Positions 8,867-36,259 of a stretch of DNA of 64,000 nucleotides are shown piece by piece. The notes beneath the pieces were generated by a model. It was not told the origin of the DNA, made no database searches, and saw only the letters and a program-made list of their open reading frames with translations. The stretch's first letter is position 1; each line of letters begins with the position of its first letter. A program made the position numbers and the translations under genes. Source of the stretch: Leptodontidium sp. MPI-SDFR-AT-0119 (taxonomy: Eukaryota; Ascomycota; Leotiomycetes; Helotiales; Leptodontidiaceae); the NCBI GenBank assembly GCA_020726505.1, contig JAHLEZ010000032.1, forward strand, positions 124,001-188,000. Reading direction: 5' to 3'.

Positions 8867-8904
8867 AGAAGTACACTATTACTGCTCACAAGCGCCCGTC
8901 CTCC

Positions 8905-9630
8905 TTTAACTCTAGAGTTGTCTGGAGAGTAGCCTAATATTAGTTAAGAAACTTTTAAGGTTAGCGAGCTTAATAAAAGGGTTCCTGTGATTACTTACGT
9001 TTTAAGGCTCGTCGGCCTCAATCGCCTTAATGAGATAAGTAGCGAAGGGAGTTACCTTAGTAGAATAAGGGACACATTTGTGCCTAAAAGAGCACTGAAA
9101 GCACCGAGTATCACGCTCGGCAGTATTCTCCTGGTAAACGCTAGGTAACGAACTATCCTTGCCCTTCGTGCTACTAAGGGCCGAACGAGCGTAGTACTAG
9201 TAAGGCACCACGCGGCGCGCACCGGTAATAAGAACCGACTTCTTCTTCTTAGTCTCGGCGGCCTTACTAAAGGAGCTAGTAGAGCCAGTAAGGGAGGAGA
9301 GCGCAGTAGGGGCCGTAGAGGGCTCTCTTTAGCCTCTGGCGAAGGAGGAACTTAACTCTATAAAGGGAGTAAGTGAACTCTAACCCCGAGGGGAAGGAAT
9401 TCCTAGGGAAGAGGGAGGGGGGGGGATTTAACTTAAAACATCGTTTAGAGTGTACTCTTAAATGTCCGCGAGTATATTAGCTACGGCGAAGCGCTTAGAG
9501 GCGGCGGCAGGGGAGGAGGGGCCGGCGGGGACACGAGCTAGAATAGTACTAGCGTCGGAAAAGATTTGTTTATTATAGTTAGCCCTTATAAATTTAGTCT
9601 CACAATTAGCTAGCCAAATGCCGACTCTTC
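8905..9630 (-). pseudogene. Antisense reading frame in the Copia-A 3' region, cysteine-motif protein
   Basis: On the strand opposite to gag-pol, one frame stays in register for about 240 codons and is broken only by TAA/TAG codons, each replaceable by Gln. It encodes a Pro/Ser/Ala-rich N-terminal half (about 9,535-9,320), a run of four lysines (about 9,250) and a compact Cys motif, RCFQCSFRHKC at about 9,120-9,090, followed by a hydrophobic helix-like tail. The stretch is clearly more GC-rich than the rest of Copia-A. The function is unknown. Copia-B and Copia-C have antisense frames at the same relative place. Chance antisense opening cannot be excluded without a protein search. Confidence 0.55.
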
Positions 9631-9835
9631 AACTTCGATCACTACACTAAGGGAACACTACTTAACTTACGGAAGACATTATTATTATTATTATTATTAA
9701 GGTTAAAGTTAAAATTAACGTTAAAGTTATTATTATTAGAGGAAAATTTATAAACAAAAACAAACTCTTATACTACTAAATATTATTTTCCCGTCTTCTT
9801 TTAGCCTAGCGTAGTCGCTTTATAGCTAGGGGGTA

Positions 9836-10053
9836 TATCACAGTACATAGTTAGCGGCACCTCTTACGCGAGCTTACTAAACGGCTAAGTGTGCTTCCTA
9901 CACACTTACAACTAACTAAACCTACTTACTTTATATATATATAGCTAGCTTTCCCCCTCTTAACGAGAGGGCGGAGTACTTCTTAATCAATCTTTTACTC
10001 CCTACTACTTTACTAATTCTCACTTCTCTACTCTTTTAGTATTCTACGTGATA
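9836..10053 (+). repeat. Copia-A 3' LTR
   Basis: 218 bp, same length as the 5' LTR, from TATCACAG to CTACGTGATA, then the AGAAG target duplication. More C-to-T and G-to-A changes than the 5' copy. Confidence 0.92.
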
Positions 10054-11548
10054 AGAAGTCTAACAAGTAGTTATAATCGATCGCTTGAAAGGCCTCTAAC
10101 GATATAATATTATTATAAATACTCGTATCCTTCTTAGCTAAATAATTATTTGGATTTATTATAATAAAAGCGTCGCTGAGTTGATTATTACGACCGATTC
10201 GACCAATCATTTAATCTAGTGATACTAGGCTATTAATAAGCCCAAAATATATAAAGTATTTAATATTAATATTATGGATTCCGACACTTAAAGCGATTGT
10301 ACTTATTAAAGTATCTTCTTTATTCGTATTATAATTATTTAATATTATATCTTTATCCTCTTTATTACTATAATAACAAGAAACCTTTAAAATATTACTT
10401 AAGAACTCGCAGTTGTCTTTAGTATTAGTAAATATAATTATCTGATCTAAATTGAGATTTTAAATTAATATATAAGTCCTTGAGTGTATTTAACGCCGTT
10501 TCTTTCTCTTCGACTTTGATAATATTATAACTTATATTAGACCTCGTCGTCGGAGCCCTTATAATATAATTTTGACTAATATTAAATTTATCTTCTAATA
10601 ATAATAATAAATCCTTGGAAAGTAGCGGAAATAAAGACTAATAGAGTAATATATTTAATAATAGAACTAATATATTTAAGTTGGTATCGGAACTCTTCTT
10701 CTAAGATAAATAAGTGCGTCTCGTCGAGAAATATAAGAAAATCCTCTTTATTATTAATTAAGGTTAATAAATAAGCGTGGAATAAAGGATTAATTAAATC
10801 CTGAATATTTAATAAGATTAAATTACCAAAGACGGGCTGATACGGCTTATAAATTTGAGCATTTAAATTTAGGCTTTTAGCTCTTGTAAATAAGTCCTCT
10901 TGTAGGCTAACTCGAGGACTAATAATAAAGTGTTTTTTATAAGTATTAATAAAGCTAGGGAGAAAGAATAAGAGGCTTTTGCCGCTATTAGTCCAGCTAA
11001 TATAAGTAATATAAGGTGTTTGCGTTAATAAGATTTGATTAATAACTTGTTCTTGCTTGTCGGATTTATATTTCGCCGTGGAATGGTTTAATAACTCTCT
11101 TAATTTAATTAATATTATATCCGAGGTTAAATTGAGTTTATTTAAACTTAATAAGTCTTGATTTAATATAATTCGGTTTGATCTTTAATACTCAGATCTT
11201 TGAGAGTATTAATATGATTATTATCTTGATTATAAACTGTCTTATAAGTATTTAAAGTATTTAAATCCGACGTATTTAATTTCGGCTTTTTTAAAAAGAG
11301 ATTAGACGATATACTCGACTTTTGCCTCTGGTGTTTATTAGGATTAATACTCTTATAAGGGTTATAATTAGCGTCGATTAAATTAAAATATTGAAAGAAT
11401 TGGATAGTAAAATCCAAGGACTTTTGCTCGAGGCTTAGAGTACTATTATTATTAATAGTATTCGCGCGGCCGTATAATAAATTAGTCGTTCTCGTCGAGT
11501 GATTAGCTTGTAAATCCTCGATTAGATCTTCGGTATCGCTCTCTAACT
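10054..11548 (-). pseudogene. RecQ-type telomere-linked helicase-like gene, helicase core
   Basis: The middle part of the interrupted gene, with superfamily 2 helicase motifs in order on the minus strand: motif I SWTNSGKSLLFFLPS at about 11,015-10,970 (Walker A with Asn where Gly is usual), motif II FLDETH at about 10,730 (DETH for DExH), motif III ISATF near 10,645, the RecQ-like second domain, and motif VI (stop)MIGRIGR at about 10,212-10,190. The TAA before MIGRIGR sits where RecQ has the conserved Gln, so it is a CAA-to-TAA change in a key residue. Single-base frame changes appear near 11,160, 10,635 and 10,450. The gene would be an ATP-dependent DNA helicase of the kind found next to fungal telomeres; it is now a pseudogene. 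Confidence 0.7.
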
Positions 11549-11696
11549 TGTGACGTAACGGGCTTTCTAATTCCTATATACGTTCTTAGAATACAAAGTA
11601 AAGATTAAAGATCAAGAGATCAAGAGAAGTTAAATAAGGGCTTGCGGCCTGAGGCCTGTAAGGCACTAATCTATGGCGATGCGCTAGCTCGTCACA
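11549..11696 (-). repeat. Gag-only element 3' LTR
   Basis: 148 bp, TGTGACGTAAC...CTCGTCACA as read on the plus strand. Nearly identical to 13,024-13,171; the few differences (such as GTAACGG versus GCAACGG and CACTAAT versus CACCAAT) are transitions. Confidence 0.9.
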
Positions 11697-12752
11697 TTAC
11701 CCCCCCCCCCTCCGAAAAGAGCTCGTCCCGAGCGACTAAGTCTAAGTCTTAAAAATGCCTTTTTGCCACGCGTTAAGGTGCCTTGGATCGTTCGAATCGT
11801 ATTCGTAGTCGTAATCGTCGTTTAAAGTAGCAATTGTCACCTTCTTTCCGCTTGTACTAATAGATCGAGAGTTTATAAAAGGCCGGGCTGATTCGTGGCA
11901 ATCCTTTAATTAATGGTCGAAACTACCACAGCATAGGCAAGCACTTATGTCCTTGTACGATTAGCGTATTAGTTCGCTAGATAAGAAATGACCAGGTATG
12001 TCGATCGAATTTATGCCTATATTCGAGATATCTATTAGGTCACCGTATCAAGTAGTCGCTGGAGGGGCATTTGTAGTATGCGGTCAAGACGAAGGATTGT
12101 GAGTCGAGTTAAGAGGACCTAAAGTACTAGAACGAGAAGACAGCTTTTGTACAACTCGTAAGAACTAAGGGTATAACGAAGGCAGTTCTAACTGTTGCGC
12201 GAGACGATTCTTAATTATTGAGTTAAGACTAAATCAAAAGGCAGAGATCTTGCGGTCGTCGTCTTAATTATGTCCTTTTACTTCATATAATATACGTTCG
12301 AACTTGGCAATATAATTAGGTATAGACTCGGAGGCTTAGTTAATTCGATAGAGGCAGTCGATAGCTTCTTGAGTCTTATTTAGGTTATTGAGGGCTCGGG
12401 AAAGCTAGTCGAGGATCGATTAGTATGACTAGAATTGCTCTTACTCCGCAGTTACTAGTTGTGGCAACACTTACGACTAGACTTGGGATTCGAGACGGTC
12501 GTATACGTAATAGAACTGTGCCACGGAGTCGCTAAGGGCGCCGGAGAGGCCATCCACACGTAGTTTGGCTTTGATAGCTAGGAGCCATGTGTCGAAGTGA
12601 TATACTTTGCCGTCGAACTTCGCAAGGTCGAGGAGAATAGGCTTCGGACAAGAGGTTCGTGCTGTAGTCTGTAGAGCTTCGACTTGAATTTAAAGGTTGG
12701 CGACTTACTCAGTGAGCTGTTGAAGTTACTAGACGGGAGTAAGGGTCGTCAT
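11697..12752 (-). pseudogene. gag: gag of the non-autonomous element, with CCHC zinc knuckle
   Basis: Starts with ATG at 12,752-12,750 (MTTLTPVQ-like) and reads in one frame for about 340 codons to a TAA that abuts the LTR at 11,697. It has a capsid-like stretch (LLDLAKFDGKVYHFDTWL at about 12,640-12,585) and a zinc knuckle ACLCCGSFDH(stop)LKDC at about 11,945-11,900 that fits C-x2-C-x4-H-x4-C exactly. The C-terminal GTSSFRRGG-like tail resembles the last residues of Gypsy-1 Pol. Several TAG/TAA codons at Gln-compatible positions inactivate it. The Gypsy-1 Gag lacks a zinc knuckle, so the parent element is a different lineage. Confidence 0.75.
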
Positions 12753-12954
12753 GTTATATAGAATTGAAAATGTAGACAAAGGAGAGAAGAAAGGTTATAA
12801 GGTAAGCTCTATATAGCGGAGAGCTAGGGTATCGTCTCGATCGAGCGTTCGATAGACGAGCAGAGAATTGATAAGTGCGGTAAAGTATCAGAGGTCAGAC
12901 AAAATATTATTCGGACGGATCAGAGCAGACAGAATACAGAATAGACAAATCAGG

Positions 12955-12992
12955 CCGGACAGACAGACAGACAGATAGACAGACAGACTGAT
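12955..12992 (+). repeat. GACA/GATA microsatellite
   Basis: A run of GACA units with one GATA interruption, in the leader between the primer-binding site and gag of the gag-only element. Confidence 0.8.
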
Positions 12993-13012
12993 ACAGTGGT
13001 CGCAACCAGAGG

Positions 13013-13021
13013 ACTTTATAT
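13013..13021 (-). other. Predicted self-primer binding site of the gag-only element
   Basis: Two bases inside the 5' LTR the minus strand reads ATATAAAGT. Its complement differs at only one base from ACTTTGTAT inside the LTR (minus sense of 13,066-13,074). The mismatch is of RIP type (ATACAAAGT to ATATAAAGT). The position, two bases after the LTR, equals that of the Gypsy-1 site. Confidence 0.5.
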
Positions 13022-13023
13022 AA

Positions 13024-13171
13024 TGTGACGCAACGGGCTTTCTAATTCCTATATACGTTCTTAGAATACAAAGTAAAGATTAAAGATCAAGAGATTAAGA
13101 GAAGTTAAATAGGGGCTTGCGGCCTGAGGCCTGTAAGGCACCAATCTATGGCGATGCGCTAGCTCGTCACA
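13024..13171 (-). repeat. Gag-only element 5' LTR
   Basis: 148 bp with TGTGACG and CGTCACA ends. On the minus strand it contains a CCTATTTAACTT TATA-like word upstream of the proposed R-region self-primer. Followed by the target duplication TAACT. Confidence 0.9.
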
Positions 13172-13816
13172 TAACTCGTATTGTAATTTAATAAGATTCT
13201 TAATAATATAGATAATTAATTGCCGGTACGGATTCACCGTAAGCGAGCCCTGTAAATATTTTAAACTCTCCTTTGATAAGATATTAGATAATTTAGCTTC
13301 GTTGAATATTATATTATTAGTTTGGAATAAATAAGGATTTTTTACAACTTCTTTAGTATTTAAAAGCTCGATATTAATCCAATTATAAAAGGGAATATAT
13401 ATTAATAAATAGGCCTTTAATATATTACTTAATTGAGGGCATAAATAGCGTATATTGTGGCTTTCTAAGCGGGTTATATTAAGGCCCTTGTGATACGTCG
13501 TCTCGATTCGAATTAAATTCGATAGGTTATCGATTACGAGGCTGCGTTTATTTAACCTTATATTATTCTTATAAGTAATAGTTAATATCTCTGTACCTCT
13601 AATAGGAGAGCCGCTTGTTAAATATATAAGATATAATAATAAGTCTAAGAACTCTTGGCGGTCTTTTAAATAAAGATTTAAATGAGTTTTATTATAATTA
13701 TAATTTTGAAACTGGGTATTAAAAGATAACCCTAAATATTGAGCTAATTTAGACTGCGGATTTCGAGCTTTATTAATTAAAAACTCCTTATATAATAATA
13801 GATTTTGATTATTATT
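13172..13816 (-). pseudogene. RecQ-type telomere-linked helicase-like gene, N-terminal domain
   Basis: An open minus-strand frame of 215 codons with no stop, using almost only A/T third positions but retaining many CAA and CAC/CAT codons. It contains LTSGSPIRGTEILTITYKN at about 13,615-13,560, YHKGLNI at about 13,500 and IPFYNWI near 13,395. These match the consensus I remember for the domain upstream of RecQ helicases in fungal telomere-linked helicases (a Pro-x-RGTE motif, then YHKG, then a hydrophobic Pro-Phe stretch). The true N-terminus is missing because Copia-C begins at 13,817. There is essentially no start codon in frame, so simple gene callers miss it. Confidence 0.65.
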
Positions 13817-14572
13817 TGTCGGTGCAGTACCGGTTTACGTACCACGCCGTAAGTGTGAATATATTCTAAATGCGTGTATAGTAATAAAGTAATAAATATA
13901 TAGTTTAAAATTTATATATATTTTAAGAGAGTGCGAGGAGAACTAGACTATATACTACGAAACCCCACCGAATCTCCACCGAAACTAGTCCGGCTAAGCT
14001 CTAACTCCTAACTTTGACCCACACCCCCTTTTCCAGATCGAAGTATACTTATATAAGGACTTGTAGATTAATATAGGCAAAACTTCCTTTAAAAAAACTA
14101 TTTTTAATACACGTAAAAGTAAATAACGAGTAATATATAAGAAATAATAAATAAAATAATAAAGTATCTAACAGCGTTTAATTCCGGCCTAATAGTGTCT
14201 CGAAAGTGCCTTAAAAGGGGTCCGAATATAGCGAGGCGCAGTAGCGAGGTTAGGCGAGAACTAGTAATAATAAGAACCCTTAGTATTATATAACGTGATA
14301 GATATATATATGTCGCCTTTCCCTAAAGGTTTGGAATCTCCTTAGTAAATACATATATAATCGTTGTACGTATATTACTTTCTGATCTCCCTGAATTCGC
14401 TTAATATAGCTTAAAAATATTTCTAAGAAGATTATATTAAATTAAATAAATAAGCTAAAAGTAAATATACTCTTCGAAGATAGTTTAGTAAGGAAACAGT
14501 ATATTAACTAAAAAATAATACTTGTACTTATACTTATAAGAGCGCTCGACCTCGTATACTATAAATATTGTA
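13817..14572. other. Copia-C terminal region, no gene
   Basis: AT-rich with a GC-richer patch at about 13,930-14,040. No coherent frame. It probably contains the 3' LTR of Copia-C, but no second LTR copy was found in the window. Confidence 0.4.
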
Positions 14573-15224
14573 TTTAGTGCGTTCGTTTCCTCGCAAAGAA
14601 CTTATCTCACGAATGCGCCTTTAACAATCCTAAGAGTAAGAAATACGCATATTACGTAAAGAAGAAGTCCTAATGTAATTTAATAAGTATTCTTATTTCT
14701 TTTTCTTATTTTAAATCGTATTTAAATCCTCGTCGAAAGTACTTTAAATATATAGTTATTAATATATAATAGATTCCGTAGTTTATCGCCGAAAAATACT
14801 TTCGTTTAGTTATTGCCCTTGAAGCAAAAGATAAAGAAGTTATTATTATTATTATGGAATTAATTAATTTGGCATTATTAATCGCCGCTATTAGCATACT
14901 AAAGATTACTAAGGAGTTATTACTGGCGTTATTAAAGGAAACGTGCGCTATACGCTGGGAAATCGCTAGCTTAGTTAGCTCACAAGTAGTAAGTTAACCC
15001 CCTTATCCCTTTTTAATACTAAGGCTCTTAAATATTAACGCTTTATTATAAGAGACGGTGTTAGTCTTAAACCGGTTCCTTATTGTCGTCTCCTTTGCCG
15101 CCACTAAGTGTAATAAAGAGGACGGCGGTAAGGACGACGCTCCTACTAAGCGTCTTCGCCGAAGTCGCCGCTATAACGCGGAGGAAGAGGACGAGGAACC
15201 TTTTTTAAATATTTATAAGTAAGG
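14573..15224 (+). pseudogene. Antisense reading frame in the Copia-C 3' region, Cys/Lys-rich protein
   Basis: On the strand opposite to Copia-C one frame holds for about 215 codons, interrupted only by TAA/TAG. The first part is Cys/Tyr- and Lys-rich (SHECAFNNPKSKKYAYYVKKK at about 14,603-14,665), with Tyr codons where G-to-A change would have replaced Cys. The middle is a long helix-rich stretch with YFRLVIALEAKDKE at about 14,795-14,836. The end is strongly charged (KRLRRSRRYNAEEEDEE at about 15,150-15,200) and GC-rich. It lies between RNase H and the 3' end, as in Copia-A and Copia-B. The function is not recognised. A zinc-binding domain is inferred. Confidence 0.55.
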
Positions 15225-16692
15225 GATTTAGTCTTATTTCGGATTAGCTTCGTAGTAGGTTTTTCGTAGCGGCACTTTCTTTATATTATTATACAGGAGC
15301 AGCCTCTTATAGTAAAACTAGTAGTTTGTTTTTATTAAAGTGTTGTCGTAAGGCCGCTCGTTAGTACTTTAAATTAAAGGGTGTTTAAAACTAAATTGAG
15401 TATGTTTTTGACTTCGTAAATTAATTAAATATAAAAATAATCGTAAGTGATAAATTAATAAGTAAGAGTTATAAAGAAATATATAAAAAATTAACAAGTA
15501 TAAGAAACTCCTTTATTACTAGTCTGAATCGACTCTAGTTGATTATTAAACTCAACCCTTCATTTTAATAGTAAGGATATTAGTATTAATAAAATCCCGA
15601 AGAGCCTTATTCGAAGTACTCTTTGTTATAGCGTTAACAGGATTATTAGCGCCATTAATTCATCGAACCTTTGTTAGCTCTCTGCGCTCGTATAATTAAC
15701 GAATAGCTATAATATCGATTATTAGGCGCTTCTCTTTCGTCGTATTAAGCTTAATAATACACTTATAAAGGGATAAAGAATTCGTGTAAATAATAGTAGG
15801 AAGACGTGGGATACTAAGCTTATTAGTTATTATATTAATAGTCGTATTAAGGGAAATTAATATATCGATATTAGCTATTATAGTATATAACTCCGATGCG
15901 AGTATTATACGAGTTATTTTCTTATATTTTATTAAGCTAGTATATATAATATTATTAGTTAAGGTGAATTATGTATTCCCTATCGTTTTGGCACCGATTA
16001 CTAGTACGAAACCTATTTGTAAACTTAGGTTTTTATTATTAGTAAAAGAATCGTTTATAAAAACGTAGACCTTCGTAAATCGTAAGTTAATTAGTACGTA
16101 TTAAAGTCCTTTCTTTAAGTTGTTTATTTATTATTTAAGGCGTAAGTTCAAAGCCTTAACGTCGTCTTTTGTTAGATCTTAGTATTATATTACGACTAAG
16201 AGATTAAATGTCGCTTTCGATTAATATATAATAGTAAAGTAGGCCGCACGAGCTTATTACTTTTTATAAACCTTCTTATAGTTCTCCTTTCTTACGTTAA
16301 TTAACTTTAGCCTTACTTCTTAACCCTTTTATAATATATAAAGGCTGTCCCTGTTTATGAAGATAGTACACTTATTAAACGTAATAGTTTTAGTAAGGAG
16401 TAATACCCGTATTAGCTTCGTTATAAAACTGGCCTTAGTAATCTTATTCTACTCTCTTACTAAGAAGTCCTTATTTCTTAGAATTAAGGTATTGTTTATT
16501 TGTATTCCTACGACTTTAAAGTTATAGCTTTTCTTAGTATTAATTAGTAAGTATAAGTCGTATATTAATGTTTTTATTTGTAAGTTTTTTATATAATATT
16601 TATAGTACGTATTAAATCAATAGTTTCTGGACTTAAGTATATTATATAACAGTAGTACTACTATAAATACTATACTAGGAGGGAAATCCCTA

Positions 16693-16697
16693 GCGAT
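16693..16697. repeat. Target-site duplication of Gypsy-1 (left)
   Basis: GCGAT, repeated exactly at 24,052-24,056 on the other side of Gypsy-1. Confidence 0.95.
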
Positions 16698-16946
16698 TGT
16701 GACGCTTGCCCTAGAAAGACGGCAATCACGTGTAACTGACGCCTCACATATCAACACAAGAGACATATGACGATACCAAGCATCAACTTAGAATCTACAA
16801 CTACAGAGGAAAGAAGGTAAGGAAAGAATAAGTCTATATACAAGAGGTTGGTATGCCTAGCACCATGGTAATCTCGGTACGTCCCGATCGGGCAGTACTA
16901 AGTGGAGCCGGTGGAAATGAGGCTCTGGGCCGTACCAGTCGTCACA
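16698..16946 (-). repeat. Gypsy-1 3' LTR
   Basis: 249 bp, TGTGACGCTTG...CAGTCGTCACA on the plus strand. Identical by eye to 23,803-24,051. The Pol stop codon touches its inner edge. Confidence 0.96.
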
Positions 16947-18857
16947 CTACCCCCCCCTCCGGAAAAAGCTCGTCCTCGAGCGTTGGTCCATCTCCTTGTC
17001 GCCATCGAGGTCGTCGTAGTCGTCAACACCATCTTCCCATGCTTTGATCCATTCAGGTAGCTTAGCAGGGGGTCCTGCTTGCTCGGGGTGACTGAGGTGG
17101 AAATCCCTGACTTTGTGCGGAGCGTACTTGAGGTCAGAGGCGTCGTACCAGTCTAAGTCAACGTCTTGATTGAGCCAAGTGACACGGTAGGATAGAGTCT
17201 TGCCCTTCTTACGGCAAGCAAGCACTTCTTCCAGTTCCCACTCGTCGTCGCCTGTAATGTTGATCGGCGGGGGGGCGTCCTGTACTTGGCCTGGTAGGGG
17301 ATCGTTGGGGTCCCGGCGTAGTTTGCTGGCCGGAAAGACGTTGTGGACCTTCATACTCGCTGGCAGTTCCAGGCGGTACGAGTGTCCTACCTTCTCGAGT
17401 ACTCTAAATGGTCCATTAGTCGGCAAATCCAACTTCCTGGACGGACGGAGTGTCTTGAAGTAGCGCATGTCGAGCCAGACTAGGCTGTCTTTATCAAAGT
17501 CGACATCGCGGCGAGAGGCGTTGTAGGACCTGGCCATCTTGGCTTGGGCCACAGTGAGGTTCGACCGAGCTATGTCCCATGCTTTCTTATGGCGTTGAGC
17601 ATAGTCGATGGCTTGTTGAGTGTTTAACTTGTCAGCGGGGGTAGCTGAGTCTGGCAAGTCAATTTTCCAGTCCCAATCCGTGCGTGGTGCATATCCATGG
17701 ACTACCTCAAATGGAGAGAGTCCCCCTAGGGAATCGTGTGGGAGGGACATCTGGGCGTAGTCCATGATAGGGAGGTACTCTGACCAGTCGTCTTGGTAGT
17801 ACGCAACGAAAGGTCGGAGTCGTTTCTGCAGGTATTGGTTGTACACTTCGGTCTGGCCATCTGTCTGTGGGTGGTCAGCGGCGGACAGCTGTCTCTTAGT
17901 TCCGAGGATCTTGCCAAGGGCGGTCCAAAACCTGGATACAAACTGGGGACCTCTGTCAGAAGTGATAGTCAAGGGGGCTCCAAAGTAGCGATACACATGG
18001 TAAATGTACATAGTAGCTAGCTTCCGAGCATCTGTCGTCTTCTGGCAGGGGATACTGATAGCTTGTTTACTGAATCTATCAATGAAGACGAGGACGTTGT
18101 CAAATCCATGCTTGTCTTTGGTAAAGGAGCAGTAGTCCACTGTGATATGTTCCCATGGTCTGGACGGAACGGGGAGAGGATGGAGGAGTCCGGGCTTTTT
18201 ATCCCGGGGGACTTGAATTCGTCGGCAGGTATGACAGTTACGGCAGTATTGCTGGACTGTCGACGTGATTCCGTGCCACCAGTACTGAGAAGAGAGCATT
18301 TGGATCGTCTTCTTAGCACCGGGGTGCGCTGTGGTGACTCGATCATGGACCTCTCGTATGAGGAGGGTTCGGAGGTGATCGACATCGGGGACCAAGAGGC
18401 GGCCGTCGTGGAGCAAGAGGTCACCCACCAGGCTGAGTTTACCTGGAGAGTCTGATACAGCTTGTTTACGCAGAGCCTGTAGGGAAGGAGCAGTGCGATT
18501 AGCCTCTAGGATTTGCTGTACGACGGAGAATGTTGGTGTGAGGGCAGCGAGCTCAACGTCGGCCACTAGCGCGTCAGCGTCATCAGGCGGCCGCAACTCT
18601 ATAGACAGCAAGCGGGGGTCAACTTGGTCTTGGCGTAGGAGTTGTTGAAGGCGTTGAGTCTTCTTCGCAGAGTTCTGTTGATCCAATTCGTCTGGCTTAC
18701 GGGAAAGTGCGTCTGCCAGGGGATTATAGATTCCAGGGCGGTACGTGATCATGAAATTGTAGTCCGCCAGAAGCTCTGCCCATCGTGCTTGTCTAGCATT
18801 CAATTGCTTGGAGGTCATAAAGTATTCCAAGGCCTTGTGGTCTGTCACAACACGGAC
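16947..18857 (-). CDS. pol: Gypsy-1 pol, distal part: RNase H end, integrase, chromodomain
   Basis: Continues the upstream pol frame without shift after the TAA at 18,858-18,860. About 636 codons, ending with TAG against the LTR. It begins with the end of RNase H (VVTDHKALEYF), then the integrase zinc domain (VHD, TAHP, then CRNCHTC), then the catalytic triad: Asp in VDYC, Asp in TSDRG and Glu in GQTEVY. There are exactly 35 residues between the second Asp and the Glu. A GPF-type module (NGPFRVLEKVGHSYRLELP) follows, then a chromodomain (EWELEEVLACRKKG to WYDASDL, about residues 536-585 from V18,848), which targets integration to modified chromatin in related elements. No internal ATG is well placed, so expression would need readthrough of the stop. 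Confidence 0.93.
   Translation of the reverse strand, partial: VRVVTDHKALEYFMTSKQLNARQARWAELLADYNFMITYRPGIYNPLADALSRKPDELDQQNSAKKTQRLQQLLRQDQVDPRLLSIELRPPDDADALVADVELAALTPTFSVVQQILEANRTAPSLQALRKQAVSDSPGKLSLVGDLLLHDGRLLVPDVDHLRTLLIREVHDRVTTAHPGAKKTIQMLSSQYWWHGITSTVQQYCRNCHTCRRIQVPRDKKPGLLHPLPVPSRPWEHITVDYCSFTKDKHGFDNVLVFIDRFSKQAISIPCQKTTDARKLATMYIYHVYRYFGAPLTITSDRGPQFVSRFWTALGKILGTKRQLSAADHPQTDGQTEVYNQYLQKRLRPFVAYYQDDWSEYLPIMDYAQMSLPHDSLGGLSPFEVVHGYAPRTDWDWKIDLPDSATPADKLNTQQAIDYAQRHKKAWDIARSNLTVAQAKMARSYNASRRDVDFDKDSLVWLDMRYFKTLRPSRKLDLPTNGPFRVLEKVGHSYRLELPASMKVHNVFPASKLRRDPNDPLPGQVQDAPPPINITGDDEWELEEVLACRKKGKTLSYRVTWLNQDVDLDWYDASDLKYAPHKVRDFHLSHPEQAGPPAKLPEWIKAWEDGVDDYDDLDGDKEMDQRSRTSFFRRGG
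16950..16962 (-). other. Gypsy-1 polypurine tract
   Basis: Minus strand reads GGAGGGGGGGG followed by the stop codon TAG and then the LTR TGTGACG. It primes plus-strand DNA synthesis in this class. The tract is translated as the C-terminal Arg-Arg-Gly-Gly of Pol, so coding and priming functions overlap. Confidence 0.85.
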
Positions 18858-21800
18858 TTAGTGGGGGGCTCCTGCCAACTCAGCACGCCAGTGCCCAAAG
18901 GATCTGATGATAGCTAGCATCTCTTTGTCGTGTACTGCGTAGTTGAGCTCAGCAGGTAGCATAGTCTTTGAAAAGAAAGCAACGGGGAACCAGTCGTCGC
19001 CGTGCTGTTGGGAAAGGACTCCGGCCACAACACCATCACTAGCATCCGTCTCTAGGAGGCAGGGTAAATCCTGTCGGTAGTGTCTCAAGAGAGGTGCGGA
19101 CGTGAGAGTATGTTTGAGGAGGTCGAAGGCATCTTCGCACTCTGCGGTAAAGCGGAAGGGAACGTTGTTCTTGGTTAGTTGAACAAGAGGTTTCGCTATA
19201 ATACCGTAGTCGCGGATGAATCTCCGGTAGAAGTTGCAAAAACCAAGGAAGGACTGCACACCTTTGACAGAGCTAGGGTAAGTCCATTCACGAACGACAG
19301 AGACCTTCTCGGGATCAACTTCTAGGCCAGAAGTTGATATGATGAATCCTAGGTACTTGGTTTGTGTTACTCCAAACTCACACTTCTTCAGGTCGGCCTG
19401 CAGCCCAGCGTCGTTGAGACGTTGAAGCACCTTTTTGACGTGGAGCTGGTGTTGCAAGGGGTCCTCAGAGTATATGAGAATGTCGTCCAAGTACGCTGTA
19501 CAGAAATCATCAAGGTAATCGAAGAGAATATCGTTCATATAGCGCTGGTAGGTGGCAGGGCCATTAGTCAAGCCAAATGGAAGAACTTTGCACTTGTATG
19601 CGCCGTATCTCGTGCGGAAGGTAGTGTACTCCTCTGATGCTGGGTCCATTCGGATTCGGTGGAAAGCTTGACGAATGTCCAATTTAGTGAAGATGCGAGC
19701 GTTAGCTATGCGGGCTAGGGTCTCATCAATCAGAGGTAGGGGGTATCGGTCCTTCCGAGTGAGGGAATTCAGCACTCGGAAATCAATACATAACCGCAGG
19801 GAGCCATTCGGCTTCTTGACGAAGAGAATGGGGGCAGCGAATGGTGCCTGAGACGGCTCGATAAATCCTTTGTCCAAGTTATCCGTGATATATTCTTTGA
19901 CAGCCTCAAGTTCTTCAGTCGACATCTTGTACAATGGCGAATACTTGAGTGCTTTCTCACCCTCTCCTTCTAGCTCAATTTTGTGATCGTACGAGCGATG
20001 GGGGGGAAGAATATCACTTTCTGCCTTGGAGAATACGTGAGTCCAATCAGCGTATTCTAGGGGAATCATTGGTTCGGCGTCTAGCTCTTGAATGGAGAGT
20101 GCAAACTGCATAGCTGACTGGCGACGATGAGTGAGTTCGACAGTCAGAGCTGATATGGCAGCGGCTTTCTCTCGCTCTTGGCTTCTTTGATCGATCAGAG
20201 CACCGATCTCTTGTAGAGTCACTACGAATATCTCATCTTTAGACTTCCGTTTAATCGACATGTGGAACGCCGCTGCGCTGATCGAGAAGATCTCAACGAC
20301 CGGACGTCGACGAGCTTTCCCACGTCGCTTTGCAATCGGTAACTCATCTCGTGGTTGAGGAGAAGAAGTTGGGGAAGGAGGAGCTTTTGTAGTCGAGTCG
20401 TGTGCGAGAGAGAGCTGCATTTGCATCTTCCGAAGTGAATTGGCGTAGTCCTTGGTATGCGTCCTGCGCGTGGAAGGAGCGAATTGGGGGGAGTCAGTCT
20501 GGTCTCGGGGGTATAAAAGCTCGGCGGTTCCGCTCTCTGGCTCAGCAACTTCCACTCGGGCCAGTTTGGTTGGGATGTATGTGTTGTCTAGTCGTGGGGA
20601 CGGTTGTATATGTTGACTGGGCTGGTTATTCAACATACTTCCTAGCTGAGGTGGAGGACCGTTGGTAGCGGAGTGCGCTCGCTCTCTAGGCTTTGTTGCA
20701 TGTCGCACTTGTTGATGCGAGAGCTCTGCGATACACAGAGAATTGACAACAGAGGTAGGTTTGACGGCAGTGCTAGCATCGGGGATTAACTGGGGGCGAT
20801 ACTGTACACCTGAAAGGCGCGGATCTGAGCATTTCTGACTCTCGGAGATTGACATAGAATTCCTTGTTGGCGCAACTTCTTCAACTGAAGCAGCGGCGCG
20901 GCCACTTCCAGAAGTCGTTAGAAGTTCTGTAAAGGTACATCGGTGTCGGGATGCCGTTGAAGAAGGTAAGGAACGTGGGAGGGGTTTTATACCCAAACCA
21001 GGAAGGAAAGAAGGGGTGGGCAAAGCGCTATGAGGCAGGTGGCCAAGGGGGTGAATGCTCCCTATGGGCGTAGCTTGCTCAACTCCGGGGGAGTATAAAT
21101 ACCCAGTGGTATTCTCGTTCCTAGGCTCAGCAACCTTGGAGATGGCCCTTCGGATTCTTGATGGAGTTCTGTGCTTTGGTTCGGCATCTACAGATATTAA
21201 GCTAACACAAATTTCCAAACGATCATCGTCCGTCGGTCTAACTGTATTGTCGACTCTGGAACTTGCTGGGGGTTCTCTTGGCTGGTGACCTTGATTTTGC
21301 GACAGTGTAGTCGTCACTTCTCGGGGATCGACAGCAGGTATAGAGCTGACAGCAGTAGTCGTTTCCGAAGTTGTTGAAAGAGAGTTGGCGTGTAGGTCGG
21401 AATTTGGTTCGGCGCGCCGGCTAGAATTCGCCATGGAACCGTCTTGTAGCTTGTTACCATAGTTGCTGTGACACGAAGTCGTAGACTCCGAGCAAACAGC
21501 AGGTCTGAATATTCTACAAGTCCTTGTTTCTGCGGTTGCCGACTCTAGTAGAGTTTCCAAGGTATTTATACCTGGCGCGGAAGGTAGGGGCGAGTCAACT
21601 GTCGAAGTCGACTCCGCAAATGGGGTGTCATGGCGGCTCCAAAATTCACGCAACTTAGCGTCTCTACGCTCGGCGTCGCGCTGGTGGCGTTGGTGAATCT
21701 TGTGTACACGTAGGTCTCGGACCTCAATCAGTTTACTGTAGCTCACTGTTGGGGGGTAGTCCGACGGCCAGATGAGCCGTCGTTTGGCCGCATCTAAGAG

Positions 21801-22178: not shown

Positions 22179-22198
22179 GCCTAGGAAGGAGCCTTTTC

Positions 22199-23671: not shown

Positions 23672-23790
23672 TCGTCAAGCTACAAGGCTTGGTATAGGCC
23701 TTTCCTGTATTTGAGCTTCTGGGTCGTAACCACTCACAGGAGAATTAGGGGGCGAGGGATATTTACTGTCTTCCTAGACGTAGAGAAAAG

Positions 23791-23800
23791 AGTTGTAGAT
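23791..23800 (-). other. Gypsy-1 self-primer binding site
   Basis: Minus strand reads ATCTACAACT starting three bases inside the 5' LTR (after TT). It is the exact 10-nt complement of AGTTGTAGAT in the R region (23,898-23,907). It does not resemble the usual initiator-tRNA primer site. In Tf1 the transcript 5' end folds back on such a site and is cut by RNase H to make the primer. Confidence 0.75.
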
Positions 23801-23897
23801 AATGTGACGCTTGCCCTAGAAAGACGGCAATCACGTGTAACTGACGCCTCACATATCAACACAAGAGACATATGACGATACCAAGCATCAACTTAGA

Positions 23898-23907
23898 ATC
23901 TACAACT
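23898..23907 (-). other. Gypsy-1 R-region self-primer
   Basis: AGTTGTAGAT on the minus strand, about 38 bases downstream of the TATATA box, where a transcript 5' end is plausible. Exact complement of the site at 23,791-23,800. Confidence 0.65.
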
Positions 23908-23939
23908 ACAGAGGAAAGAAGGTAAGGAAAGAATAAGTC

Positions 23940-23945
23940 TATATA
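23940..23945 (-). promoter_or_regulatory. Gypsy-1 TATA box
   Basis: TATATA within CTTGTATATAGACTT on the minus strand of the 5' LTR. Conserved as CTTGTATATAAACTT in the RIPped Gypsy-2 LTR. Position fits transcription starting near the self-primer. Confidence 0.6.
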
Positions 23946-24051
23946 CAAGAGGTTGGTATGCCTAGCACCATGGTAATCTCGGTACGTCCCGATCGGGCAG
24001 TACTAAGTGGAGCCGGTGGAAATGAGGCTCTGGGCCGTACCAGTCGTCACA

Positions 24052-26050: not shown

Positions 26051-26297
26051 TGTGACGACTGTCGCTGTCCAGAGCCTCATTTCCACCGGCTCCACTTAGT
26101 ACTGCCTGATCAGGACGTACCGAGATTACCATAGTACTAGGCAAACCAACCTCTTGTATATAAACTTATTTTTTCTTTACCTTCTTTCCTCTATAGTTAT
26201 AGATTCTAAGTTAATACTTAGTATTGTTATATGTCTTATATTAATATATAAGGCGTCAGTTACACGTGATTACCGTCTTTCTAAGGCAAGCGTCACA
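26051..26297 (+). repeat. Gypsy-2 5' LTR
   Basis: 247 bp, TGTGACG...CGTCACA. The first 25 bases contain a block (TCGCTGT) that differs from the Gypsy-1 LTR by more than transitions, so this is a distinct subfamily. The adjoining primer site TTATCTATAACT still pairs with AGTTATAGAT in R, because RIP changed both partners compatibly. Confidence 0.93.
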
Positions 26298-26428
26298 TTA
26301 TCTATAACTCTTTTCTCTACGTCTAAGAAGACAGTAAATATCCCTTGCCCCCTAATTCTCCTGTGAGTAGTTACGACCTAGAAACTCAAATACAGGAAAG
26401 GCCTATACTAAGCTTTGTAACTTGACGA

Positions 26429-28015
26429 ATAGTAGTATTAAAACCCCTATTAATAGCGAAGTTAACATCTACTTCACCACTATTACCTTCATTCTCCTCC
26501 CTGACTTCTACCTTAATACGACGAAGTCGAAACCCTCTCTTTGCCGGACCTCTCCCTCTAACTCGCTAAGTCAAGCCGAAAGTCGTCCCTCCTTTAATAA
26601 AGCGATCCGCTATAAACGACGTTAATATATCGTCTGCCTCTTCTTCTATCCCCTTACTTAACTCTCCTGATACTAATAATCCTTTAGTTAATACTTCCAC
26701 TAATACGCTAAGGAGTAATATAGAGCCTGTAAGGACATATATAAGAGAAATACTATAAGAAAGCCGACTTCGCATTTTAGAAGAGTAACTCGCGGAGAGT
26801 CGTATAAAGAACTAATAATTAAAGCTATCTCTTTAACAACAGCGACAAACGACCGACGAGCCTTTATTACGCAGACCCGCCCTAAGATCTATAACTTTCC
26901 AAGAAGGGGACATACCCCTTTATCCCTCGATTAAGAAAACTCCTGCCCCCGAGCTAAACAAAGGCAAAGGTAAGGCATAAAGTACTCCTAACCTTAGTAG
27001 ACCACTAGACGACAATAGTAATAATAACTACTGACCTCCTCGCATCCTAAGTCGTCGTTCCCCCTCTTTCTCTAGGATATCCTAAATGTCTACAGCCTCA
27101 CGAATCGAGAAGATCCCTAACTTAAATAATAAGCTTTCGAACAGTATCAGCTATAGTCCACGTTTATAAGAAGTCTAAGTTTAGAATACTTTACACTAGT
27201 ACGACTAATACTTCGTCGACGACGACCACCAGAAGGACTAGTTATTAGTATAAACAGAAGGAATAACTCACACGTTCTTAGAACCCTCTTTCTTATCCCT
27301 GACGCTCGACGACGACGGAAACATCACAGATGCGCTTAACTTAATTAACTAAGTAGTTAAATTCTTAACTAACCCTTATAAGTAATAAATAACGCGTAAC
27401 CTTTATTCCGCGTTAAAGATAAAAACCGCAAAACAAACCTTTTAGGATTTTTACTAATAGTTTAGAATTTTTACTAACTAAGGCGGCGTAACTAATAACT
27501 TAATACTTAAAATAGACTTATAAAACAAGCTTCCGTCCCGCCTACGTAAGTAACTATTTTATAAGTATCGGAGGGCTAAGACTTTAGAAGAATATATAAG
27601 AGTAGTTTAAGCCGAAGACTAAGGACAGATTATAGAAAGCACTATCTACGTTAGTCGCTTTAGCCCCTTAGCGACAGGTATAAATTCCTATCCTTGATCC
27701 TAAGTTAATATCTCCTTAGGAACCACGGGAAAGTTACCCCAAGCTTCTACTACTTCTTCGTCCTAGCGACGAGAGACTAGCCAACCCCTAAGTCAATAAA
27801 TCTCTATATAAGCCGACACACTTCGTGCTTAAATACTAATAAATGCCTCACGGCATTTCGCCCAACGGCCCCTTAATCGTAGTTATGCCTCCCGTGTTAA
27901 CAAGATAGAAGTAGGCGCCGACTACGGCGGTCTTATATCTAATAGCCAAGCTACAGACGACAACGACAACTTACTAATAGAGGAACCTACCCCACAAGTA
28001 AAAGACTTAGCCTAG
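26429..28015 (+). pseudogene. gag: Gypsy-2 gag, RIP-inactivated
   Basis: Colinear with Gypsy-1 gag. The start codon is mutated from ATG to ATA (26,429-26,431) and stops occur from the first codons onward. Recognisable stretches include the acidic region near 26,990, the capsid-like region at 27,300-27,640 and the end (GAACCTACCCCACAAG) near 27,982-27,997. Confidence 0.85.
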
Positions 28016-28033
28016 GAAAAGGCTCCTTCTTAA

Positions 28034-28582
28034 GTATAATACGAGATATACGACATCTTAACTTTACGAAGCTTCTTAACGGACTAACACTCACTACCCG
28101 TATCGCTCTCTCTAAAAATAAACTCACGTACAAGATGCCCGCACTTCTTAATTCCGAAGCTAATAATTATTATTTTATTAATTACTCTCTTTTAAAGTCT
28201 CTTTCCTTTTTTTTAAAACCTTTAATTTACTTATTGCCTTTACTTGTCCCTGTTAAAGGATTTAATAATTAAACTGGCTAGACTATTAGCCACTATACTA
28301 CGTTAAATTTAATAGTCGACAAGCGTTTATAGTTATTTACTCCTTTCTTAATTACTTACTTAAGAAACTATAAAGTAATTATTAAAAGATTATAGCTAAA
28401 GTATTACAAAGCGCTCTTAGATACCGCCAAACGACGGCTCATCTAGCTATTAGACTACTCCCTAATAGTAAACTATAGCAAACTAATTAAGGTCTGAGAC
28501 TTACGTGTACACAAGATTCACTAACGCTACTAACGCGACGCCAAGTGTAGAGACGCTAAGTTACGTGAATTTTAAAGCCACC
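28034..28582 (+). pseudogene. pol: Gypsy-2 pol, 5' fragment with protease
   Basis: Matches Gypsy-1 pol residues 1 to about 175, including the protease region at about 28,140-28,165. It is cut at CCACC (28,578-28,582), the left target duplication of Copia-B. The rest resumes at 37,225. Confidence 0.85.
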
Positions 28583-28779
28583 TGTCGCGCACTAGCGCAG
28601 TTCTTTGGTCTGGTGCATGCTTGCGTAAGCACTCCAGGTATATAAACCCAGTCTCCAGCTCCTCTCTTCAGGAAGACAACGCTTAATTTAATAAAAATCT
28701 TTGAATACACTTTCTAGAACCTCACTTAATCGTAAAATCTTTTAAACCCCTGAGCTAATACTCGTTCTTCTATACGACA
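28583..28779 (+). repeat. Copia-B 5' LTR
   Basis: 197 bp, TGTCGCGC...TACGACA. Contains GGTATATAAACCC as a TATA-like element at about 28,637. Fewer mutations than the 3' copy. Confidence 0.92.
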
Positions 28780-31900: not shown

Positions 31901-34730
31901 GTGCCACGTCTCGACCGAATTATTGTCACGCGTAACGTACGCTTTAATAAAGACTTGTTTTATAAGTCAAGTCAAGAAGAAGTAATAATTACAGTTAAAG
32001 AAGCTTAATTAATTTGTGATTTTATCGAAAAAGATAAATTAGTCGTAAACTAGGCCGGAATCCTAGAGAATATTATAAGTAATAAGACTATTGAGGAAGC
32101 GACAGCTATAATTAAAAGTACTCTAATATTACTTTCTGAGCCTATTAAGGGACTGACTACTACTCCAGAAAGTCAAAACTCGGGGGTGAAGGATACTAGA
32201 GAACTAAGTATTATAATAGGACTTCTAACTCCTAAAGCCACTCTTATATTAAATGATGCGCCGGTTAAAGTACTAGTAGAGGGCAAGGAGTAGAGGTCGA
32301 GTGCGTACGACCTAGGGCTTACGCCAGGCATAGAATAAGACTCAGAGGGATCGCGTCTAAGTGAGAATATACAACTCATAGATCGAGCGTCAAACGTACT
32401 ATAAGACTAAGTTAAAGGTCCGTCTCGAGCTTCTAGACTCGAGATTTAAATACTGTCATTTACTCTAAAAGCGGATTACTTACGAGTGGAGTCACTACTA
32501 CTAAAAGAAGTATTAGAGGAACTAACTGAAAACTCTAATTAAGTAACTCAAGAAGTTATAAATAAAAGTCTAAAGTAATTAACTCCTTAAGCGCAAGCTC
32601 TTAGAACCTCGGATTCGTTATCGAAAGCAGTGACGCGCTCTCGGACTAAAGTGTTAGGAGCTTAATTAAACGTACGAGGACAGACGAGAGTAATAACACA
32701 CTCTTAAATAAAGGTTAAGGCTATTACGACTCAATTTAAAACTTCAAGTGCTCGAGAAAAGCTAATAAGGAGCACAAGAAAAAGAGGGAGACTACGTAAA
32801 GGAAGTAAAAGTAATAAAGTATTTATAACGCTTACTACTATCTTCAAAGAAACGCGCTCCTAAAAGGGCAACTCTAATCTCGGGGGTGACTTAAACCTTA
32901 GGAGTATAGACTTTAACGAGTATACCTTAATTAAGTATAATAATCTTTAATCCGAAATTAACTAGCTTCTTTATAGGCTTGTGCCTAATTAATATATATC
33001 TTAAGAAGAACAAGACAATTTTAGGGAATTAACTAAGACAATATATTTAGTAATCGCGGCAGTAATATAAGTAAATCGCCCGCTACTAAAAGGGAAGCTC
33101 TTACTTCTTAAAGTTAAAGTCCAAGATCTTCTACTAAAGCTAAAGAGGTGGAGTGATCTTAAGAACTACTTAATAAAAAGGTAGTTTCTAAAAGACTATA
33201 AGTTAGAAATAAGGAATATAAATAAATATAAATACTAACACTTACAGAAGTACGATTCGAGCACTATAGACACACTTGTCCCGCTTATGTAAGTCTTCAA
33301 ATATAAGCCTAATAAAGACGGATATATCTTAAGATATTACTCTTAAATAGTAGTTTAGGGTAATCTCTAAAGTAAAGTAACGATTATATTAATATACGCT
33401 AGTATACTCTCTATAAAGTCTTTTAGAATCGCTATAGCGCTCGTAGTCTATTTTGATTTAGAAGTCAAGTACTTCGACGTGATTAATACTTTTATTAATG
33501 CCTTAAGAGATATAAACGGTGAAATAGTATATTACTAATTTCTACTTAGTTTTTAATAGCTTAGCTAAGTATTATAAGTTAATCGCGCACTTTATAGAAT
33601 GCGTGATTCCCCTTACCTTTAGTATAAGTATATAAGTAAGACTCTAACTAATCTGGGGCTCTCTCTTTACTCAGAGGAGCCTTACATGTTTATAGATCTT
33701 AAACACAAAATCTTAGTCCTCTTTTACGTAGACAATATTTAAGTACTTTATTACCAAGATAATCAGAAGCTTAGACAAGATCTTATTAAGCGTCTAAACT
33801 AAGTATATAATATACATAATCTTGGAGACATTAAGTAATTCTTAGGGATTAAAGTATTACGTGATCGAAAGTACAAAACGATCTCCTTAGTCTACAACTA
33901 GTACCTTAAGAAGATCACTCGCAAATTTAAGTAAGTAGATAGCAATTGTCTAACGACACTACTACCACAAATCGATCTTGTCAAGTACACAGGACAAGCT
34001 TTTAAGAAACACATCAAAGTATACTAGGAGAGAGTAGGCTCCGTCTTATACGCAATAATTATTACAAGACCGGATATTATATATACAATTGCCCTACTCT
34101 TACAATTCGTAACAAACCTTAGGCCTAAACACTTCACTGTAATACATTAGCTCATTCGCTACTTGTTTAGTACGCGCTTCCTAGGTATTATTTATAGTAG
34201 GTATTATAGTAAAGTAATTATTATTACCTCCGACGCCTCTTTCGCTAATAATATTAAGACACGATAATTATCCCAGGGTTACGTGATCTTTCTATTTAAC
34301 GGGCTAGTAATTTAGAAAGTATCAAGATAAGTAATAATCACTACTTCAATAACTAAAGCAGAACTACTTACACTAAAATATATAAGTAAAGAAACTATAG
34401 CTCTTTAGCGCTTCTTCAAAAATCTGGCTCTTAATCTAAGTGAGACGTAGGAGATTCTATATAATAATCAATAAACTATTAGACTCGTTGTAAATAATAC
34501 TAAAAGGATCGTGACAAAGTTATATTATATTAATATTTATAATATATAATTAAAGTAAGAGTATACTCGCGGATCCTTTAAAGTAACATATCTTCTAACT
34601 ACTAATATGCCTACTAATAGTCTCACGAAGAATTTGTCTCACTAGAAGTTCGAGCTTTTCAGAGCTCTCTTAAACTTTAGTAATCACAGATCTCAAGTTA
34701 AGGAGCTTTAAATATATTTATTAAAAGTAT
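28904..34730 (+). pseudogene. Copia-B gag-pol polyprotein, RIP-inactivated
   Basis: ATG at 28,904 (MSSTSINEPIKLLLSK). The GAG-pre-integrase region at 30,884-31,190 is unusually open (102 codons) with WHLRSKYLRPDALRKL and CKYCALTYVSQ. Integrase continues with WDLFDYLIGFKN (31,203) and AERAG near 31,520. RT has LEVKYFDVINTFINAL at about 33,460-33,506 and LFYVDNI at about 33,720, in the position of the YVDD active site. RNase H shows TSITKAELLTL at about 34,346-34,377 and the NQ-TIRLV motif near 34,465. Stops are frequent elsewhere. The frame becomes unrecognisable after about 34,730. Confidence 0.85.
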
Positions 34731-34952
34731 ATTAAGGAATTCTATATTATTTTCATTTATAAAAACTTTTTTATTTAATAAATTAAGTATCTTTATAACT
34801 AAAACACTAGAAATCCACCTAATTCTACTCAAATCCTACAGTAGATCTGACTAAACTTAGCTAAAGATCTTATAAATTTATAAAAAAAAAAAAACTTAAC
34901 TGAAACTCTACGTAAAAACAAAAAGATCCCTGCAAGCCTAGTCAAATCTTAC

Positions 34953-36259
34953 TCAAACCTGAAGTTCTTTAGACTGAAGTATACTAGTTATGTTTTCAAA
35001 TATATTCGTTATATTTATAGACTTTCTGTGCTTTCCTGTAACTCTATTAACTCTAGTTCTAGTCTTATTATCCGAGTTATTTTTCTTACTATACTTAAGA
35101 GGAGGACGGCGCGAAGAAGAGGGAACGATCTTATTAGTCTCCTCTTCGGAGCTCAAAGACTTACTTAAATACTCGAGGAGGGTCTTGACAATAATACGAT
35201 ACTTCTTAATAGACTTAAAATAATTAACTTAATAATCGCTAATAATTTATTAGAAAATCACATACCTTTTAATCGTTAGTATTAATAGCGCGGACTAATC
35301 TCTTACTGTACTTTAGAAGATTGTTAGTAGCAGGAGAGTATATATGTCCACTAGTGTAAGTAAAGTAGCGATTACTAGCCGAAGTAGTATTTATATAATA
35401 GTAGCCTCGATCTCCTTTACTAAAGGCAGTAACTTAGATATATAGTAAATAAAGATTAGTAAATTCGCGGCTTATAGTATTATTAGTGTATATTCTAATA
35501 CTCGATCAACGAAAGTGAGATTTAAACAAATAAAAAGGAATATATATTATAAGTTCTTCTCACTAACGAAGATCCCTTAGAACTCTTGCGAGACTAGTGA
35601 GGAGAAGTAAAAACACTAACGCGTTTACGAAGTTAGAGATTAAGAACTTTATTTAATACTCTTTTAAGAGTCTTTAGAGTATTAATAAAAACTTAAACAA
35701 CTATCTTAAATAACGTACGAGTAACGCGAACAAAAAGTAAAGATTTTAATAAGAAGAGGCGAATAGAAGTACGACGAAAGCGGCGAGGAATAAGTAAGAT
35801 GTTATCGTTAGAGTTAAATATATCCGCAGAATAAAGGGGATCGCTTAAGAAGACAATAAAACAAGAGAGTGTAAAAGAAATAAAGGAGGCACCGCCGGCA
35901 AACTTATTTTTATTATTATCGATCTCGCCGAAGACATCCTTAAGCTTATTATTATCGTCTTCTTAAATAGGAGATAGTGAGGCGGATACTTCTATAATAA
36001 TCATTTATTACCTAAAGAGTTAGTTCAATACTCGAAAGTGAGGGGGTAAGAGATAAAAGTATAGAAATAAATAATCAAAGATAAGGAAATAAATACTTGT
36101 AACTTAGAATCTTTAGCGACGTTATTCTTATATAACTTCACGCTCTATATTAGAGCTACCTTCCTCGCGGGCAATCTAACGATTTATTCGATTAGTGAGA
36201 GCCCTAGAACGTTCTTATAAACTCTTAGTAGTCTTAAAAGGAGTAGATTTATTAAGCAT
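34953..36259 (-). pseudogene. Antisense reading frame in the Copia-B 3' region
   Basis: From an ATG at 36,259-36,257 (MLNKSTPFKTTKSL) the minus strand holds one frame for about 190 codons, broken only by TAA/TAG. The start is Arg-rich (ERSRALTNRINR), then a hydrophobic stretch, then EDDNNKLKDVFGEIDNNKNK at about 35,960-35,900 and RRFRRTSIRLFLLKS near 35,790. A second open stretch at 34,953-35,156 (SSEEETNKIVPSSSRRP) may be its continuation in another frame. I do not recognise the protein and see no clear Cys motif, unlike Copia-A and Copia-C. The shared position and orientation make it of interest. Confidence 0.45.

What the first reader, a model, noticed from the sequence alone, without database searches (positions are those of the whole stretch)
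8905..36259. Three different Copia elements each carry an antisense reading frame between RNase H and the 3' LTR
Copia-A (minus, 9,630-8,905), Copia-C (plus, 14,573-15,224) and Copia-B (minus, 36,259-34,953) all contain, at the same relative place, a frame on the strand opposite to gag-pol. In A and C it stays in register for more than 200 codons, broken only by TAA/TAG codons that fit mutated Gln. In A and C the product has a compact Cys/Tyr motif with basic residues (RCFQCSFRHKC; KKYAYYVKKK with Tyr at likely former Cys). The frames overlap locally GC-rich islands in otherwise RIPped elements. Antisense genes downstream of pol are known in some plant LTR elements, but I know of no described fungal Copia family with such a gene. 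It could be a silencing-control or chromatin protein, or an acquired host gene.
Basis: partly seen in the sequence, partly recalled or inferred. Interest (0 to 1): 0.75.

Follow-up and report, generated by a model that had tools for sequence, protein, structure and literature searches.

The report
Antisense six-cysteine genes in fungal Copia
Several families of Copia-type jumping genes in this fungal genome carry a small extra gene on the opposite strand, intact in young copies and in one family clearly split by introns, whose protein has a zinc-finger-like set of cysteines and probably helps the element regulate itself.

Summary
The core observation holds and is stronger than stated. The window's Copia-A, -B and -C are RIP-mutated relics. 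Each has an antisense exon between pol and the 3' LTR with one cysteine layout, C-x2-C-x11..18-C-x9..10-C-x2-C plus a sixth position. The five columns hold only Cys or Tyr across copies. The layout occurs in 1 of 6 frames per family and in 0 of 12 pol control frames.

Two intact Copia families in the same genome carry such a gene. Copia-D: 16 copies with one geometry; the copy fetched whole has identical LTRs, a target-site duplication and an open antisense frame that Pfam calls DUF3716 (E 2.7e-14). Copia-E: a predicted three-exon antisense gene; 38 of 38 matches with a listed reverse transcriptase nearby lie opposite and downstream of it; pN/pS 0.41 in nine open copies.

Antisense genes were known in plant elements and one fungal Gypsy family (Boty, brtn); ten searches of one open-access library found none for fungal Copia. 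Function is inferred.

The parts
3193..3408 (+). Copia-A 5' LTR
   Evidence: 216-nt direct repeat, 91%
9838..10053 (+). Copia-A 3' LTR
7093..8661 (+). Copia-A pol, 3' part (RT, RNase H), decayed
   Evidence: read-through; Copia-E pol tail matches 7972-8661 at 58%; RVT_2 row at C26:131324-132004
8999..9379 (-). Copia-A antisense exon with the six-Cys motif; 5' boundary unresolved
   Evidence: 157-codon run without a stop fixed in all 28 copies; Cys/Tyr columns; relative P0047
8955..8998 (-). Copia-A antisense intron, 44 nt
   Evidence: same length in 28 of 28 copies; GTAAGT in 27 of 28; AG in 15, AA in 11, other in 2; P0047 continues across it
8886..8954 (-). Copia-A last antisense exon, ending in TGA
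   Evidence: matches the tail of P0047 in a new frame
9431..9628 (-). possible upstream exon of the Copia-A antisense gene, uncertain
   Evidence: 66 codons without a fixed stop
14540..14682 (+). Copia-C antisense exon with the six-Cys motif
   Evidence: Cys columns at 14569, 14578, 14614, 14644, 14653, 14674; donor at 14683 is GTAAGT in 16 of 29 and ATAAGT in 11 of 29 copies
15555..16433 (-). Copia-C pol, 3' part, on the opposite strand
   Evidence: 39% to Copia-D pol, E 8e-70
28583..28779 (+). Copia-B 5' LTR
37028..37224 (+). Copia-B 3' LTR
33908..34618 (+). Copia-B pol tail
   Evidence: 47% to Copia-E pol tail
35267..35505 (-). Copia-B antisense exon with the Cys layout (Tyr in the window copy); 5' boundary unresolved
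   Evidence: columns 269, 272, 286, 297, 300 Cys/Tyr only in 11 copies; donor GTATGT or GTATAT after it

Best explanation
These Copia elements carry an accessory gene on the strand opposite to gag-pol, between the end of pol and the 3' LTR. It is probably transcribed from its own promoter near the 3' LTR, is spliced, and encodes a small protein (about 150 aa in D and E) with a six-Cys motif, in Copia-D a DUF3716 domain. Introns on the antisense strand are not spliced out of the sense genomic RNA, so they survive retrotransposition. Shown here: position, orientation, intact frames, conserved splice signals, purifying selection, homologues in other fungi. Inferred: zinc binding, nuclear location, and a role as a trans-acting, nucleic-acid-binding regulator of the element's own expression or silencing (about even odds for that last step).
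For: Intact Copia-D: LTRs 275 of 275 nt identical, TSD GATAT, gag-pol 1711 aa on minus and DUF3716 frame on plus, 1694-2164 of L069; PF12511 E 2.7e-14, RVT_2 4.2e-8; the same geometry in 16 of 16 copies, at dissimilar flanks. 46 protein relatives in a database search. Copia-E: LTRs 98.5% identical, pol stop outside the antisense gene; predicted exons with GTACGT..CAG and GTAAGT..GCTAAC..TAG introns; 58 matches, 38 with an RT row within 3 kb, 38 of 38 opposite and downstream, gap 1283-1472; pN/pS 0.41, pN below pS in 36 of 36 pairs; by transversions 0.36, 32 of 36. Copia-A. Layout test A, B, C.
Against: No RNA data, so transcription, splicing and protein are unproven. Copia-A, B, C and E products match no Pfam family, and profile comparisons to the D-type family were negative, so common descent of the five genes is not shown. 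The Copia-C query found no database relative; A found one. No transversion signal in B or C. Three of 16 young D copies share one Cys-to-Tyr change at the sixth Cys, so an intact motif is not strictly needed in each copy. One of 6 Copia-A rows with an RT nearby does not have it in the expected place. Four of five slices downstream of other open RTs lacked the motif, so the gene is not universal, though the slices may miss it. The nine E copies for pN/pS were chosen for being open.
Confidence: 0.82

Rival explanations
1. The antisense frames are by-products of base composition or of mirrored codon structure, with no gene.
For: Stop rates alone do not separate the frames in the RIPped relics; the mirror sense frame shares the wobble signal.
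Against: A curated Pfam domain over threshold in intact copies, 46 relatives, 0 stops in nine divergent E copies against 28 in the mirror frame (copies chosen for openness), splice signals, layout test.
Confidence: 0.02
2. The antisense unit works as an RNA (for example by pairing with the genomic RNA), and the protein is secondary.
For: Antisense transcripts of retrotransposons are discussed as regulators in PMC7264820 (passages).
Against: Amino-acid constraint: pN/pS 0.41 and conserved Cys columns; an RNA alone would not need them.
Confidence: 0.07
3. The protein is a structural or packaging factor (nucleocapsid-like or RNA chaperone) rather than a regulator.
For: Cys-rich small protein with a basic N-terminal part in E.
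Against: It is placed antisense, outside gag-pol, with its own introns, so its dosage is not tied to particle assembly (inference).
Confidence: 0.12
4. A host DUF3716 gene was captured and is carried passively, without benefit to the element.
For: The genome has non-Copia DUF3716 genes (for example L022, PF12511 E 9.9e-13).
Against: Selection across diverged E copies, the same layout in five families and two pol clades, and a distinct conserved TE-type N-terminus in D relatives.
Confidence: 0.1

Closest known systems
Boty-like Gypsy elements of Botrytis cinerea and Sclerotinia with antisense gene brtn (Zhao et al. 2011, Virology 417:248; not read, known to me from passages of PMC7264820, PMC8365987, PMC4227169)
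   Same: Fungal LTR element with an additional antisense gene between pol and the 3' LTR
   Different: Gypsy (BcGypsy1; gag-pol with chromodomain per PMC4227169), not Copia; its sequence was not compared with ours
Plant Retand-lineage Gypsy elements with antisense TRP28 genes (PMC11963269, passages) and maize Grande gene23 (cited there and in PMC7264820)
   Same: Antisense gene between pol and 3' LTR, present across a lineage, suspected nuclear DNA-binding regulator; Grande gene23 has its own promoter
   Different: Plant Gypsy; TRP28 (PF04195) did not come up in the Pfam scans of our proteins
Pfam PF12511, DUF3716
   Same: Copia-D product is a member (53.3 bits, cut-off 22)
   Different: The family has no known function in Pfam's name; A, B, C and E products are not recognised as members
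Fungal Zn(II)2Cys6 binuclear cluster proteins (recalled)
   Same: Six cysteines in a C-x2-C ... C ... C-x2-C ... C order
   Different: Longer loops; no such Pfam family in the scans; the Copia-D model had no PDB match

Membership tests
Ty1/Copia LTR retrotransposon | RVT_2 reverse transcriptase with integrase upstream of it | tested here: met
   Copia-D: RVT_2 4.2e-8 over cut-off; gag_pre-integrs and rve before it, both below cut-off. Copia-E: RVT_2 rows
Ty1/Copia LTR retrotransposon | LTRs ending TG..CA with target-site duplication | tested here: met
   Copia-D TGTTGG..CCAACA, GATAT; Copia-E TGTCG..CGACA, GAAAA read from the flanks printed
PF12511 DUF3716 | Score over the curated cut-off | tested here: met
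   Copia-D only: 53.3 bits against 22
PF12511 DUF3716 | Same, for Copia-E (intact), A and C (RIPped copies) | tested here: not met
No Pfam hit at E<=10 for E, A, C; for RIPped copies the scan is weak.
Antisense accessory gene of LTR elements (Boty brtn, Retand, Grande kind) | Gene antisense to gag-pol between pol and 3' LTR | tested here: met
Boty brtn | Sequence homology to BRTN | not tested
   brtn sequence not at hand
Retand TRP28 (PF04195) | TRP28 domain | tested here: not met
   not among Pfam hits for D (E<=1) or E (E<=10)
Zn(II)2Cys6 cluster | Pfam match or fold match | tested here: not met
   no such Pfam hit; Foldseek PDB 0 matches for D; E model too poor, pLDDT 49.7

The most novel reading that the evidence does not exclude
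Fungal Copia elements of at least two pol clades share an old class of antisense-encoded, intron-containing six-Cys proteins, DUF3716 included, that act in trans as regulators or anti-silencing factors against host defences; DUF3716, a domain without known function, would then be in part a retrotransposon accessory domain.
Probability: 0.25. Interest if true: 0.85.

Novelty: new variant of a known kind. Interest (0 to 1): 0.62.

Why it matters
Retrotransposons are usually taken to need only gag and pol. A conserved antisense gene in several Copia families, intact in young copies and under amino-acid constraint, argues that these elements make another protein. It gives a Pfam domain of unknown function a genomic home and a testable role, and it brings to fungal Copia a layout so far discussed mainly for plant Gypsy elements. 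The intact families make experiments possible in an ordinary laboratory fungus that carries such elements.

Tried and rejected
Stop-codon counts as proof of the antisense frame: rejected, other frames are as open. hhalign of A, B, C frames against the D-type family: negative. E profile against the other families: A copies weak, best about 0.005, some of the low scores fall on other frames. Pfam scans of A, C and E: nothing; NCBIfam: nothing. Database search with the C copies: nothing. PDB by sequence and by fold for D: nothing. Search for relatives' genomic context in viral and prokaryote contigs: pattern matches but no relative, so whether the 46 relatives sit in Copia elements is unknown. 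A second upstream intron in Copia-A was considered and left open. One search had used a chosen part (41) of the RT rows; it was redone with 150 RT rows typed from the list, which counts 154 matches, same result for E.

Full report
What the window holds. Copia-A has LTRs at 3193-3408 and 9838-10053, Copia-B at 28583-28779 and 37028-37224. Copia-C runs on the minus strand and ends at about 13,817; an intact Gypsy element splits it.

The relics alone are ambiguous. I compared 28 Copia-A copies (of 41 rows), 30 Copia-C copies (40 rows; 29 of the 30 in the extended alignment) and 11 Copia-B copies, the window's included (41 rows). Stop rates do not single out the antisense frame.

The Cys columns settle the frames. 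In A, six columns are Cys or Tyr only, as expected if RIP turned TGY into TAY. The same search rule finds the layout in one frame of A, one of B and one of C, each antisense, and in none of 12 pol frames. B was spotted when a profile of natural A copies matched one B frame at 9.5 bits, E 3.7e-4 for a search of six frames. Its columns 269, 272, 286, 297 and 300 are Cys/Tyr only; the sixth position is Tyr in the window copy.

RIP-proof evidence in A. Transversions shared by at least two copies fall 1, 12, 1 over the three positions (p 1.8e-4), and pol controls behave alike. Subfamily indels in the exon are 21 nt (4 copies), 18 nt (1) and 3 nt (1); there are also a few 1-nt gaps in single copies or pairs. 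C and B have too few such sites and show no signal.

Splicing in A. A Cadophora sp. M221 protein, P0047, is the only database match to the A copies (E 6.6e-28, with only the 7993 best candidates scored). It follows our exon to ADEPQ and then continues in another frame. Between lies a 44-nt stretch, the same length in 28 of 28 copies, starting GTAAGT in 27 and ending AG in 15 and AA in 11. P0047 lacks the first C-x2-C segment. C has a donor GTAAGT in 16 of 29 copies and ATAAGT in 11 right after its Cys exon.

Intact family D. A search of the genome with PF12511, chosen because I recalled its Cys pattern, gave 35 matches. Sixteen are one Copia family: 13 identical and 3 with one change. In 16 of 16 the pol lies on the other strand with the same spacing. 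L069, one copy fetched whole, has 275-nt identical LTRs, TSD GATAT, a 1711-aa gag-pol and the 156-aa antisense frame. Over the compared stretch the 16 copies differ at one site, Cys to Tyr at the sixth Cys in three copies. Forty-six relatives were found, E 1e-98 to 2e-19, with sources naming Botrytis cinerea, Trichoderma harzianum and Fusarium austroafricanum. Fifteen columns are invariant, among them Y48, N50, Q55, C65, C79, C90, C93, W95. The AlphaFold2 model has mean pLDDT 78.8 and no PDB match by Foldseek.

Intact family E. Of five 2.3-2.5 kb slices downstream of open RT frames (L100-L104), one, L101, holds the motif, on the strand opposite to pol. The element has LTRs 98.5% identical over 200 nt and its pol stops at 435,998 on contig C12, outside the antisense gene. 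The predicted gene has exon 1 from an ATG (about L101:1673-1753), a 105-nt intron, exon 2 at 1859-2155, a 51-nt intron and exon 3 to about 2287, 152 aa in all (length counted by me). The donor of the second intron is GTAAGT in 8 of 9 copies. Exon 2 has 58 matches in the genome (a few rows are pieces of one locus). With 150 typed RT rows, 38 of 58 have an RT within 3 kb and 38 of 38 are opposite and downstream. For B the figures are 9 of 41 and 9 of 9; for A 6 of 41, of which 5 fit. In nine open copies pN/pS is 0.41; by transversions alone 0.36 against 0.39 to 3.78 in other frames, the one similar frame being the mirror frame with 28 stops.

Relations. E pol is 58% identical to A and 47% to B over the tail and did not match D; C pol matches D pol. 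So the gene occurs in two pol groups. The products of A/E, C and D do not match each other by profile beyond weak scores, so whether they are one family or repeated captures is open.

How it may work. By position and analogy it is an accessory gene read from the other strand. Its six-Cys motif suggests a zinc-bound nucleic-acid-binding protein acting on the element's own DNA or RNA, or on the host's silencing of it. This step is inference. The three D copies with the Cys change suggest supply in trans or dispensability.

What is known. PMC11963269 (passages) reports antisense TRP28 genes in plant Retand elements. PMC7264820 (passages) reviews plant cases and cites Boty of Botrytis and Sclerotinia. 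PMC8365987 (passages) places brtn in BcGypsy1; PMC4227169 and PMC5987419 (passages) mention it. The original Zhao et al. 2011 was not read. Ten searches of the held open-access library listed no paper on an antisense gene in fungal Copia and none with the word DUF3716; subscription papers and preprints are outside it.

Noticed in passing
16691-24051: Intact-looking Gypsy element on the minus strand with LTRs identical over 249 nt, inserted in the Copia-C relic; frames of 491, 1136 and 636 aa with RVT_1 and RNase H.
   Followed up: partly
26048-28582 and 37225-42145: A decayed relative of that Gypsy element, split by the insertion of Copia-B.
   Followed up: no
10588-13834: A DEAD-box helicase fragment (PF00270, 3.4e-8) beside a 257-aa frame without Pfam match and a 152-nt direct repeat (11549-11700, 13024-13175); perhaps another mobile element.
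   Followed up: partly
59216-60592: Open HET-domain gene (PF06985, 8e-31) at the edge of the repeat-rich stretch.
   Followed up: no
L036:1-1623: A DUF3716 match lies about 900 nt downstream of a Gypsy-like RT fragment on the same strand; L028, L031 and L034 have a similar DUF3716 sequence.
   Followed up: partly
L022, L023, L027, L030: Larger DUF3716 frames (207-439 aa) without a Copia pol nearby in 3-kb slices, so the domain also occurs outside these elements.
   Followed up: partly
L024, L025, L026: The only variable site among 16 young Copia-D copies over the compared stretch is a G to A change at the sixth Cys of the antisense protein.
   Followed up: partly
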